NCBI GenBank assembly: GCA_032158125.1
Contig: JASKOT010000054.1
Location: 1-62,563 of the forward strand
DNA length: 62,563 nt
Origin: Papiliotrema nemorosa
Lineage: Eukaryota; Basidiomycota; Tremellomycetes; Tremellales; Rhynchogastremaceae
Direction of reading: 5' to 3'
The translations under genes were made by a program, and so were the position numbers. Shown here one piece after another: positions 37,417 through 48,269 of the stretch; position 1 is the stretch's first letter, and each line of letters begins with the position of its first letter. The notes beneath the pieces were generated by a model, which saw only the letters and a program-made list of their open reading frames with translations, was not told where the DNA came from and ran no database searches.

Positions 37417-39382
37417 TCAATTTGCCAGCACGTACGACTTGGCGGCGTCCTTTTCAACATCCGATTGATCCACCTTTACAATTGGCTCGTCGTACGTCAG
37501 AGCAGCCTCGTCTCTTTCCCGCTCGTCATTCTCGTCGGCCAGCTGCTCGAATCGAAGAGACCTCTCGTTGGCCATGGCGGACTTTTCCGGGAAGATCAGA
37601 TAAGATGCAAAGTACATCACCCCGGCGATCGCATAGGTCAACGTGAAAGAGATGTAGAACATTCTCTGAGCGTTCAACGACATGCCGAGATGCTTCTTGT
37701 CGATCTGGGCAGCGAACGAAGGCAGACAGGGAAGCAGACTCAAGATGGTGACTGCGATCGCGCGGGGGTTGACCCCGCGGTAAAACCAATATCGACTGCT
37801 CGGGCTGCCGTCAAAGATGTCGTCCATGGAGAGGTTGCCTTTCTTGATCATGTAGTAGTCGACGCACATGCACGCCGCGACTGGAGTATCAGCAGGTACT
37901 CGCAGACATGCTGATCTACTCACTTGGTGCCAGCCAGTAGCCATAACCAGAAACTGCGCATCAGCCATCTCATCCAAATGTCTTGCTTACGGAATGTGAG
38001 GAGAGCTTGTGCGTTGTTAAGGACCTTCCACGGGATAATGCAAACACCCAGAAGGGTGCACAAGATCTGACCACGTCGGATAGTCATCCATCGAGGAAAG
38101 AGCGCAGACAAGTCTGAGCCAAAAGGTAGCGAGTTGGTGGCCAGGTTGACACCCAGGTACGCGATGGCCATGGCAAATGCGCACAAAAAGATACCAAACC
38201 TTGCCCCTCGGTTGTCGGGATATTGATCGAGCATGTAGGACATCACGTCCCACAGGTTCCAGAACGCTTTGCCGGTCATTTGCTTGCTTGCGGAAGCCAC
38301 AAGAATACCATACAGGCATGGTAGAGCCGAAGCGATGGGGTAGCCAATGAGTGTTGTCTAGTAGTCAGTGCGGCCGACGCTGGATGCTTACCCAGATCGC
38401 CGCAGACGGCTTGTTGGCATACCGGGTCATGTCGCCTTGGTTAACTGTCAAGGAAGAAGCAGCACCCAGGCCACTATTGAAGGCTCGAAGAACCAGCCAG
38501 GCGCGCGTGGTCGTCGTCAATGGGGTCGTCGACGTTGTGCGCAGATTGCTCCACCCGGCCCCTCCGTTCTTGACCATCCACCAGATGAGCACCGCATGCA
38601 TGGCGCCAAAGACAAAGATCGACTTGAAGGTGTAGAACCATTTGAGATCCCTCGAATGGACACAGGACAAGGCGAAGAATCCCACCATGAAAAGGATGAA
38701 TGAGACGAGGTCCCGTGTAGTAATGTCGGCCGACAGGGGCAGGGTGTTCTTCATCGTACCGTAAGAGGGCCAGATGGCGGTCAGGGCGACCGTCAGGCAT
38801 CTAGCTCCACTCTTGGTCAGTATAGTAATCATATGCCGATCTTTGGGATTTACTAATAAGAGTTTGTCCCGTTCCAGATGATGCACACAATGGCTCGCAT
38901 TCCGACGGCCATGTAGCTTCCCCACATGCCATATGTTGCTCTTGCAAATACTGGAAACTGATCGTCAGGGCAAGCCAAGACCGTAGATACTCACCCCAAT
39001 ATGGTATCTAGCGGGACCGCGACCATTGAGGACGATCAAAATGGTAATCAAGATATGTGATGTAGCCAAAGCCAGGTAGGCGTCGAGAGGGGGAGTGCCG
39101 ACAGAGATTAGACTTGACCCGGCGACCCAACTACCAGCACCGGCCGCATGGGCCAGCCAGAAGGCAAGGTAGGTCCATTGCGTCCACTTTCGGTCCCTGG
39201 GAGGCGACACAGCGAGATCGAGGTTTGTCCACTGTAGTTGGCATGTGTCCTTTAACATGGCTTACCCTTTTACCATGAAACTCGTCGTCCTGTCCCTTAG
39301 GAGGGGGAGCTTCCAGAAACTTGACCAACGCCTGGCGGCTGGTAAAGGCTTGTCGCATACTGGATACCTTGTCCGAGAACAT
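37417..39382 (-). CDS. NCS1-family permease (uracil/allantoin/thiamine-type)
   Basis: This is a plasma-membrane nucleobase-cation-symporter-1 (FUR/DAL subgroup). It starts at 39382 (MFSDKVSSMRQAFTSRQ). After the first intron it reads RWTNLDLAVSPPRDRKWTQW, then AGAGSWVAGSSLISVG in helix 1, AVGMRAIVCIIWNGTNSY in helix 3, and NQGDMTRYANKPSAAIW (family QGDMTRY hallmark). Then follow TLIGYPIASALPCLYG, NLATNSLPFGSDLSALFP and DYYMIKKGNL. The C-terminal cytosolic tail is acidic with Lys (IVKVDQSDVEKDAAKSYVLAN), a possible ubiquitylation region. About six short introns. It shares a 215-bp divergent promoter with the DHA2 transporter; that promoter holds paired GATA sites and a CGG-N7-CCG element. Likely cargo is a nitrogenous ring compound. 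Confidence 0.88.
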
Positions 39383-39449
39383 TCTATCTGGCGACTCGTG
39401 TCAAGAGCAAAGCAAATCGCTTGAATATATACCGCGTGTCCGAGGTGGT

Positions 39450-39468
39450 CTTATCAGCTGGAGATAAG
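39450..39468. promoter_or_regulatory. Inverted pair of GATA-factor sites
   Basis: CTTATC (39450-39455) and GATAAG (39463-39468) face each other with 7 bp between them, in the divergent promoter of the NCS1 permease and the DHA2 transporter. Paired HGATAR sites are the typical target of AreA/Nit2/Gat1-type nitrogen-catabolite regulators. Confidence 0.55.
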
Positions 39469-46403: not shown

Positions 46404-46503
46404 CTTTTGCATTGGTAGTGATCTACTCAATAACACATCGCCTATGCATGGTTGAATGGCATGTTCAAGTGGTCCAGAGGTCCTAACCGCGCAGCGATCC
46501 CGT

Positions 46504-48269
46504 TCACATTCTTTCCACCTGGCTCCGCCAGTCCATGCTCCGCTCCCAGGTATCTGCAATGCTCAAAAGCTTCCCTTCGTTCCAGAACTTCCCTACCAGC
46601 TGCATTCCTACCGGCAAGAGGATCTCCTTGTCCGACTCTTTCTCGATATCCTCGAGCATAGGCGAAGAGAATCCGACGGGGATGGTGAGAGCCGGATGTC
46701 CAGTTTGGTTGAATGCCGAGGTATTGGTCACCGTTCCAGGAGCATGCTCGGCCCATCCCAGCGGGCCAGCATGAGCAGGGATATGACGTCGGGCGGGTTG
46801 AGGCAGTGTCGGCATGAGGATCGCGTCGTACCGCTCGAGCACGCCATCAAACTCGTCGCGCATCTTTCTAGTGAGGTTCATCGCACGTCCGTAGGCGGTC
46901 GGGTACTTGACCCATGCGTATTCACTGGCGTTAGCGAGGTTGGACAGGAAGCTCACCATGACATGGCAGTACCCGTTACAAAGTATTTTGCCTTGTTGTA
47001 CTTGTCAGGGGTCCAAGGCAAGAGGTGATCCCAGTAATCGTTCAGATACAGTCCCCTCCTACCGACTTGACGTCCTTGGCGCGTTCCTCCGGATGCAAGC
47101 TTGTTGATGACATGACCTAGTGACGGTCCAAGGGTGAATGTAGGCACCGACACTTCTTCCACCTTGGCACCGAGGGTCTCAAAGTGGTGTATCGCTTTGC
47201 GCACCAGCGCCTCGACCGATGGACATAAAGCTTTTGCTGCAAATCCCTCTTTGAGGATGCCCAATCGCATCCCCTTGACCCCTAGCTCTCGCCTTTGAAT
47301 CACCATATCAGAGTATTTCGGGGCTTTGACAGGCGCGCCGAGTTGTCGGTCGTCAATCTGATCGTATCCCGCGATAGCTTCCAGCAGCTTGGCCGTGTCC
47401 AAAACTGTCTGTGCCATGGGCCCAACATGATCCAGCCCAGTGTCGGAAGAGAGTACACCAGTGTATGGGACAAGACCAAATGTCGGTTTGAGGCCAACTA
47501 TCCCGCAGAATGCCGCCGGCTGAGGTTAGTGTTCGAGTTGCAAGCCACTCACAATGCGGATGGATCCTCCCTGATCACCTCCAATGGCCATGTCTGCCTC
47601 ACCTGAGCCCACCAACGCTCCGCATCCCGAACTGGATCCTCCAGTTGTGAAGCCGCGAGCATAAGGGTTCTCGACTGGACCAAAGGGGGACGAGGAAGAG
47701 GTCGCTCCGTGAGAAAAGTTCTGCCTCAGCGTGAATCCAGACGGGAGCTCACCTCGCATGCCGCTTTACCTATAATCCGGCCCCCGTTGTTCAGTACACG
47801 GCTCACGACTGTCGCATCTACCTGGGCTGAATCTCAACACAACCTCCATGGTCTCATCACTCACGAGTGAAATCGACAAACGCGTCCGTCCCAAAGATCA
47901 GCGGGACACCCGCCAGGCAGATGGTGTCTTTCAGAACGACCGTCTTGTTCTTCAATAATCCACCGCTGATCTCTGCAGTCACTTCTGCTTTCCACGCCCA
48001 AGCTCGGAGGGGATTTTGCGAGGCGTCTGGCAGGTAAATGTTGTTACGAGAGTGAGCATGGTGATCAGGCAAAGGTTGATAGTCTGGCCATTAGCACATT
48101 TGCCCACTCAGCACATACCCTCTTGCTCGAGAATGAGTCGACACGCCGCATCCGTCTTCTTTAGCAGCTCGAGGTATTCATCTTCGTGGCCAAAGGGAAT
48201 TTCAAACCCGATTCGCTGGGCGGCAGAGAGGACGTCTCCTTGATCTGCTGTAGACTTATGGACCGCCAT
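46504..48269 (-). CDS. Amidase-signature family amidase
   Basis: This is a cytosolic Ser-cisSer-Lys hydrolase that releases ammonia from an amide. It starts at 48269: MAVHKSTADQGDVLSAAQRI. The catalytic Lys is in NKTVVLKDTICLAGVP, the cis-Ser in TTGGSSSGCGALVGSGEADM and the nucleophile Ser in GGDQGGSIRIPAAFCG. Then follow GIVGLKPTFGLVPYTGVL, GPMAQTVLDTAKLLEAIAG and the C-terminal TNTSAFNQTGHPALTIPVGF. At least five introns, including splices that remove 47876-47770 and join DQGGSIRI to PAAFCG. All triad residues are intact. Next to a PuuE/cyclic-imidase-like gene pair, the natural reading is hydrolysis of the half-amide product of ring opening, as HxnN does in A. nidulans; this is inference from neighbourhood. 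Confidence 0.87.

What the first reader, a model, noticed from the sequence alone, without database searches (positions are those of the whole stretch)
37417..48269. Uncharacterised catabolic gene cluster: NCS1 permease + DHA2 MFS + Zn2Cys6 regulator + two PuuE/imidase-like proteins + amidase
Six adjacent genes form a logical pathway: uptake of a nitrogenous ring compound (NCS1), opening of a cyclic imide or ureide (PuuE/NodB-fold enzyme), hydrolysis of the resulting amide (amidase-signature enzyme), a second transporter and a dedicated regulator. Intergenic distances are small (14, 67, 100, 215 and 238 bp). The HxnM/HxnN pair in the Aspergillus nidulans nicotinate pathway is a precedent for imidase followed by amidase, but no nicotinate hydroxylase or hxn monooxygenase is present here, so the substrate must differ.
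Basis: partly seen in the sequence, partly recalled or inferred. Interest (0 to 1): 0.85.

Follow-up and report, generated by a model that had tools for sequence, protein, structure and literature searches.

The report
Fungal nitrogen-ring degradation gene cluster
A yeast-like fungus carries six neighbouring intact genes that look like an importer, ring-opening enzymes, an amide cutter and their own switch for feeding on some nitrogen-containing ring compound, and one of the enzymes belongs to a conserved family whose usual catalytic residues have been replaced.

Summary
Three results go further. (1) Linkage recurs in relatives: A and B share an inferred contig in 5 of 7 comparable species, A and amidase in 9 of 14, B and amidase in 2 of 7. 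NCS1, MFS and regulator could not be tested. (2) GATA sites are concentrated in the four promoter regions; a palindrome (TTCCGA-N4-TCGGAA or everted) lies in three of them and nowhere else in the window. (3) A keeps the PuuE catalytic residues; B, its sister clade, lost motif-1 Glu-Glu and the motif-2 His in all 19 sequences examined, yet stays nearly as conserved as A. The HxnM/HxnN parallel is functional at most: A and B are PuuE-like, not HpPgdA-like, and the amidase is nearest a bacterial amidase, not FAAH. Best reading: a nitrogen-regulated catabolic cluster for a hydantoin- or imide-type ring, working like bacterial hydantoin-utilisation clusters. Substrate, direction of transport and B's role are inferred, not shown.

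The parts
37417..39382 (-). NCS1-family permease, 578 aa in the short model (612 aa if it starts at 39533)
   Evidence: PF02133 263 bits, TIGR00800 304 bits (cut-off 353) (on the 612-aa model); exons; only solved relatives found by sequence are Mhp1 hydantoin permease entries
39598..41686 (+). DHA2-type MFS transporter, 585 aa
   Evidence: PF07690 156 bits; TIGR00711 155 bits, below its cut-off of 230
41701..43654 (-). Zn2Cys6 transcription factor, 574 aa
   Evidence: PF00172 28.8 bits and PF04082 62.9 bits, both over cut-off
43722..44954 (-). PuuE-type protein A, 337 aa, catalytic motifs kept
   Evidence: TIGR03212 241 bits (cut-off 425); 3cl6 E 1e-57; motifs
45193..46403 (+). PuuE-type protein B, 329 aa, catalytic motifs 1 and 2 replaced; contains one GC-AG intron (45592-45627)
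   Evidence: TIGR03212 248 bits (cut-off 425); 1z7a and 3cl6 E 8e-64; nine replaced columns
46504..48269 (-). Amidase-signature enzyme, 528 aa, with GGSSSG at 172 and GGDQGGSIR (Ser198), Lys102
   Evidence: PF01425 267 bits; nearest solved structures 3a1k/3a1i
39474..39498 (.). NCS1/MFS divergent promoter: everted TCGGAT-N3-TTCCGA (one mismatch) overlapping inverted TTCCGA-N4-TCGGAA at 39483
45087..45101 (.). A/B divergent promoter: TCGGAA-N3-TTCCGA
48367..48392 (.). Amidase promoter: TCGGAA-N4-TTCCGA (48367) overlapping TTCCGA-N4-TCGGAA (48377)
39450..39468 (.). Two GATAAG/CTTATC sites (39450, 39463), NCS1/MFS promoter
43695..43700 (.). CTTATC site upstream of the regulator
45045..45109 (.). 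Two GATAAG/CTTATC sites (45045, 45104), A/B promoter
48359..48364 (.). GATAAG site upstream of the amidase

Best explanation
A nitrogen-catabolic gene cluster. Shown: six intact genes; shared promoter sites (GATA plus a palindrome); recurrent linkage of A, B and amidase in other fungi; A with PuuE catalytic residues kept; B a conserved PuuE-derived paralogue with those residues replaced. Inferred: the Zn2Cys6 protein binds the palindrome and a GATA factor adds nitrogen control; the NCS1 permease imports a small cyclic ureide or imide; A opens the ring by PuuE-type, metal-independent hydrolysis; the amidase releases ammonia from the resulting amide or carbamoyl group; the DHA2 protein moves a related compound. 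A five-membered hydantoin-type ring is the likeliest substrate class (my odds about 0.35), which would make it work like bacterial hydantoin-utilisation clusters (NCS1 transporter, ring opener, carbamoylase; gene logic recalled). B probably does a separate step with altered chemistry rather than repeating A's reaction.
For: Intact genes and families. Linkage: A with B in 5 of 7, A with amidase in 9 of 14 comparable species. Palindrome in 3 of 4 promoter regions and 0 of 263 outside tiles; GATAAG 6 of 26 window sites in 920 bp, 0 of 5000 shuffles; HGATAR 9 of 126, 3 of 5000 shuffles. A motifs and PuuE fold. NCS1 aligns with Mhp1, Trp117 and Asn318 kept. Separate DAL1-type allantoinase exons, allantoicase and uricase in the genome. 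B's clade, replaced columns and conservation.
Against: No expression, growth or enzyme data. Linkage of NCS1, MFS and regulator in relatives was not tested. B and amidase are linked in only 2 of 7 comparable species. Linkage rests on locus tags and equal contig lengths, not on opened genomes. The palindrome was found by eye before it was counted, is absent upstream of the regulator, and its genome-wide count did not complete. NCS1 changes Mhp1's Gln121 to Asn. The amidase family acts on many amides.
Confidence: 0.65

Rival explanations
1. A is a second, metal-independent allantoinase and the cluster is an accessory allantoin or purine route.
For: A and B are nearest PuuE allantoinase; NCS1 has weaker matches to allantoin permease models.
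Against: Own genome has exons of a DAL1-type allantoinase, allantoicase and uricase elsewhere. C. neoformans dal1 deletion shows a growth defect on allantoin (PMC3646786, passages) although C. neoformans lists an A orthologue at 74% (that the mutant's strain H99 carries it was not checked). A clade differs beside the catalytic His (HGN for HGY) and at Pro89 for Trp. No allantoicase or ureidoglycolate enzyme in the block.
Confidence: 0.12
2. B is a non-catalytic subunit or regulator of A: PuuE is a homotetramer, and B could take places in an A/B oligomer.
For: Catalytic residues lost, fold kept, evolution rate follows A's (r 0.94); adjacency to A in 5 of 7 species; PuuE homotetramer with an independent active site per monomer (PMC6983136, passages).
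Against: In the listings Rhodotorula paludigena and Sanghuangporus show B without A, and Rhodosporidiobolus, Leucosporidium and C. neoformans show A without B (best 120 rows each), so the pair is not obligate. B has gained its own invariant residues.
Confidence: 0.25
3. The cluster opens cyclic imides (succinimide, glutarimide), by convergence with HxnM/HxnN.
For: Imide to half-amide to acid plus ammonia fits a ring opener plus amidase; HxnM/HxnN do this in A. nidulans (PMC9304392, passages).
Against: A and B are PuuE-like rather than HpPgdA-like; PuuE's known ring is a hydantoin (allantoin); nothing here tests imides.
Confidence: 0.3
4. Chance neighbourhood: unrelated genes on alternating strands.
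For: Alternating strands; short spacings alone may be ordinary in such a compact genome; NCS1, MFS and regulator not shown to be linked in relatives.
Against: Recurrent linkage of A, B and amidase; shared promoter sites including the NCS1/MFS promoter.
Confidence: 0.1

Closest known systems
PuuE allantoinase (3cl6, 1z7a, 3s6o)
   Different: A and B score far below the TIGR03212 cut-off (241 and 248 against 425); A changes residues next to the motifs; B lacks motif-1 Glu-Glu and motif-2 His.
HxnM/HxnN pair of the Aspergillus nidulans nicotinate regulon
   Same: A NodB-fold ring opener with an amidase beside it, under a specific regulator and nitrogen control (PMC9304392 and PMC8478523, passages).
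   Different: HxnM is HpPgdA-like, HxnN nearest FAAH, HxnR is Cys2His2; no MoCoBD_1 protein found in this genome.
Bacterial hydantoin-utilisation clusters (hyu; recalled)
   Same: NCS1 transporter, ring opener, and a second hydrolase releasing nitrogen; the only solved relatives of this NCS1 found by sequence are Mhp1 entries.
   Different: Different hydrolase families; no racemase recognised; substrate unproven.
BA3943, a NodB-fold pseudoenzyme (PDB titles only)
   Different: Only 17-18% identity over 187-189 aligned residues; a distant bacterial protein.

Membership tests
PuuE allantoinase (A) | PuuE fold and sequence similarity | tested here: met
PuuE allantoinase (A) | Conserved catalytic motifs (NYEE, HGxRW, LHxR) | tested here: met
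PuuE allantoinase (A) | NCBIfam equivalog cut-off (TIGR03212, 424.6 bits) | tested here: not met
   241.2 bits; the model was made for bacteria and archaea
PuuE allantoinase (A) | Allantoin hydrolysis | not testable with these tools
   indirect evidence against, from PMC3646786 (passages)
PuuE allantoinase (B) | PuuE fold and sequence similarity | tested here: met
PuuE allantoinase (B) | Conserved catalytic motifs | tested here: not met
   motif-1 Glu-Glu and motif-2 His absent in 19 of 19 B rows
HxnM / HpPgdA-like cyclic imide hydrolases | Closest to HpPgdA (3qbu) rather than PuuE | tested here: not met
HxnM / HpPgdA-like cyclic imide hydrolases | Cyclic imide hydrolysis | not testable with these tools
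   no assay possible
HxnN | Amidase closest to FAAH among solved structures | tested here: not met
   nearest by sequence 3a1k (E 1.9e-77); FAAH entries E 4e-27 and weaker. HxnN's own comparison was by structural model, so the tests differ in kind
Amidase signature family (amidase) | PF01425 and the Lys/Ser/Ser motifs (roles recalled) | tested here: met
   PF01425 266.9 bits; Lys102, GGSSSG at 172, Ser198 in GGDQGGSIR
Nicotinate (hxn) cluster | MoCo hydroxylase HxnS | tested here: not met
   no PF02738 match in the own genome
NCS1 family (permease) | PF02133 | tested here: met
   263 bits, over cut-off
Hydantoin-utilisation cluster (as function) | NCS1 transporter with hydantoin-binding residues | tested here: inconclusive
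   Trp117 and Asn318 kept, Gln121 to Asn; other NCS1 substrates use the same positions

The most novel reading that the evidence does not exclude
B is a new kind of NodB-fold protein: a PuuE duplicate that replaced its catalytic set once, before Pucciniomycotina and Agaricomycotina split, gained its own invariant set (W103, T107, W116, P271, H272, nearly invariant N104), and now carries out chemistry unknown for this fold in a nitrogen-ring pathway, with A- and B-type genes also passed into some ascomycetes by horizontal transfer.
Probability: 0.35. Interest if true: 0.8.

Novelty: new variant of a known kind. Interest (0 to 1): 0.6.

Why it matters
It gives a defined, testable catabolic unit in basidiomycete yeasts for a nitrogen ring compound outside the known purine and nicotinate routes; my literature searches (listings, open-licence papers only) showed no description of it. 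The A/B pair is a natural experiment: a duplicated hydrolase whose second copy lost the known catalytic residues yet stayed almost as conserved as the first, so B is either a new activity or a dedicated partner. The palindrome and GATA sites make the regulator's targets directly testable.

Tried and rejected
Rejected: B as a pseudogene (open spliced frame with one GC-AG intron; orthologue 73% identical). Rejected: A and B as recent tandem copies (sister clades of 24 and 19 rows that each span basidiomycete subphyla). Rejected: the second PuuE-like gene on contig C57 as a copy of this cluster: it groups with general fungal PuuE-like proteins on a long branch, its regulator and MFS are 25% and 36% identical to the window's in tblastn, its amidase matches only weakly, and the N4 palindrome is not in the two C57 loci. 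HxnM in this genome: PF01522 gave 7 matches, five places that look like chitin deacetylases by eye and one on C57. That search missed A and B themselves, whose exons are short, so it does not exclude an HxnM paralogue; PMC8478523 says such paralogues exist in all Dikarya it investigated. A protein search with A found PuuE-like exons only in A, B and C57.

Led nowhere: caffeine paper on Desarmillaria tabescens (passages); literature on fungal hydantoin use (listing); a GATA-site definition in PMC3314646 (passages).

Papers: PMC9304392, PMC8478523, PMC3084791, PMC10967932, PMC6983136, PMC3646786, PMC4195764, PMC3314646 and PMC12735256 were seen as passages only; all others as search listings.

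Full report
Setting. The window is the whole of contig C54 of a 19.19 Mb, 68-contig genome.

Observation. I spliced the six genes by hand. Introns are tiny (32-59 nt) and all six read through: NCS1 (-, 37417-39382, or to 39533), MFS (+, 39598-41686), Zn2Cys6 (-, 41701-43654), A (-, 43722-44954), B (+, 45193-46403), amidase (-, 46504-48269). B needs one GC-AG intron with a GCAAGT donor. The NCBIfam matches lie below their curated cut-offs, so they assign no equivalog name.

Conservation in relatives. No fungal genome could be opened, so linkage is inferred from locus tags and equal contig lengths in the protein listings (best 120 rows of 6481, 7933 and 2757). Compared are species with both proteins in the listings, amidase rows at 50% identity or more. 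A with B: linked in Naematelia encephala (525191/525190), Cryptococcus sp. DSM 104549 (IAT38_005544/005543), Pseudohyphozyma (MNV49_002251/002252), and by equal contig length in Tremellales sp. Uapishka_1 and Tremella mesenterica; not in Saitozyma sp. JCM 24511 or Phenoliferia sp. Uapishka_3 (B there on a 4-kb contig): 5 of 7. A with amidase: linked in Uapishka_1, Rhodosporidiobolus poonsookiae (two pairs), R. ruineniae, R. nylandii, R. microsporus (tags 4-6 apart), Leucosporidium, Phenoliferia sp. Uapishka_3, Meredithblackwellia and Mucidula; not in Cryptococcus sp. DSM 104549, Tremella, Saitozyma sp. JCM 24511, Marasmius fiardii or Dendrothele: 9 of 14. B with amidase: adjacent tags in Kwoniella pini (I206_102205/102204), one contig in Uapishka_1; not in Cryptococcus sp. 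DSM 104549, two Saitozyma species, Tremella or Phenoliferia: 2 of 7. Left out: Naematelia and Pseudohyphozyma amidases (43-44% identical), Elasticomyces, Kwoniella and Rhodotorula rows from different strains or species. The agaric rows (Marasmius, Dendrothele, Mucidula) were checked afterwards and fall with A (29 rows, SH-aLRT 95, quick tree). Looser PuuE-like and amidase pairs with equal contig lengths also occur in Neolentinus, Punctularia and one metagenome contig.

Promoters. Noticed by eye, then counted: TTCCGA-N4-TCGGAA occurs twice in the window (39483, 48377), TCGGAA-N3-TTCCGA once (45087), and TCGGAA-N4-TTCCGA once (48367). With one mismatch allowed the first two patterns gain only 39474, which overlaps 39483; shuffles give means of 0.18 and 0.15, and 0 and 3 of 100 reach two matches. 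All lie in the NCS1/MFS, A/B and amidase promoters; none lies upstream of the regulator. The four promoter regions (920 bp, 1.5% of the window; the amidase region was set at 400 bp by me and the short NCS1 model used) hold 6 of the window's 26 GATAAG sites, at least one in each; shuffles average 0.44 and 0 of 5000 reach 6. The published consensus HGATAR (PMC8478523, passages) is less striking: 9 of 126, shuffle mean 2.7, 3 of 5000 reach 9. Of 263 tiles outside, 0 hold the palindrome and 20 hold GATAAG. Of 41 loci held, only one that overlaps the window has the N4 palindrome. The genome-wide count did not complete.

What it is not. HxnM is classed HpPgdA-like (PMC8478523, passages), so A and B are not HxnM orthologues. 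HxnN's structural model is nearest FAAH (PMC9304392, passages); this amidase is nearest 3a1k/3a1i by sequence (that these come from Rhodococcus is recalled). There is no MoCoBD_1 match in the genome, and PMC8478523 reports no hxn clusters in Basidiomycota. The genome has exons matching DAL1-type allantoinase (211, 139 and 24 bits on C3; none alone reaches the cut-off of 358), allantoicase and uricase. The C. neoformans dal1 deletion shows a growth defect on allantoin (PMC3646786, passages) although C. neoformans lists an A orthologue (P0242; presence in that mutant's strain not checked). So A is probably not a spare allantoinase.

Mechanism. Inferred: uptake by NCS1, ring opening by A, ammonia release by the amidase, control by the Zn2Cys6 protein and a GATA factor. 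Mhp1, the hydantoin permease, is the only solved NCS1 relative found by sequence, matching in part of the protein, with Trp117 and Asn318 kept and Gln121 changed to Asn. Hydantoin-type rings are my first guess, because PuuE's own substrate holds that ring and the bacterial clusters have this gene logic (recalled); imides are second. The role of the DHA2 protein is unknown. B's role is open: a separate step with new chemistry, or a partner of A. Species listed with one but not the other speak against an obligate pair.

Verdict. A new variant of a known kind, with B the most unusual part.

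Noticed in passing
L016 and L017 (own genome contig C57, 20.5-40.5 kb): A second catabolic-looking neighbourhood: sugar-type MFS, zinc dehydrogenase, MFS, a PuuE-like gene with catalytic motifs kept (26143-27372), fungal TF, old-yellow-enzyme type oxidoreductase, another amidase (about 31969-33430), asparaginase C-terminal domain and an Amidohydro_2 protein.
   Followed up: partly
window 45592-45627; C57 26641-26685: GC-AG introns (GCAAGT and GCGAGT donors) were needed for open frames in B and in the C57 PuuE-like gene.
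   Followed up: no
own genome: No MoCoBD_1 domain was found, so a molybdenum-type xanthine dehydrogenase also seems absent although uricase and allantoicase are present.
   Followed up: no
P0006, P0007, P0012, P0013 (B); P0243, P0252 (A): Ascomycete A and B sequences nest inside Tremellomycete ones, suggesting horizontal transfer.
   Followed up: partly
window 39433-39533: An upstream exon extends NCS1 in frame to 612 aa; it holds the palindrome, so it is more likely promoter, but the start codon is unproven.
   Followed up: partly
window 35953-37167 and 22607-24457: Neighbouring reading frames: a Myb-like DNA-binding protein ending 250 bp from NCS1, and an MFS transporter; named by eye only.
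   Followed up: no
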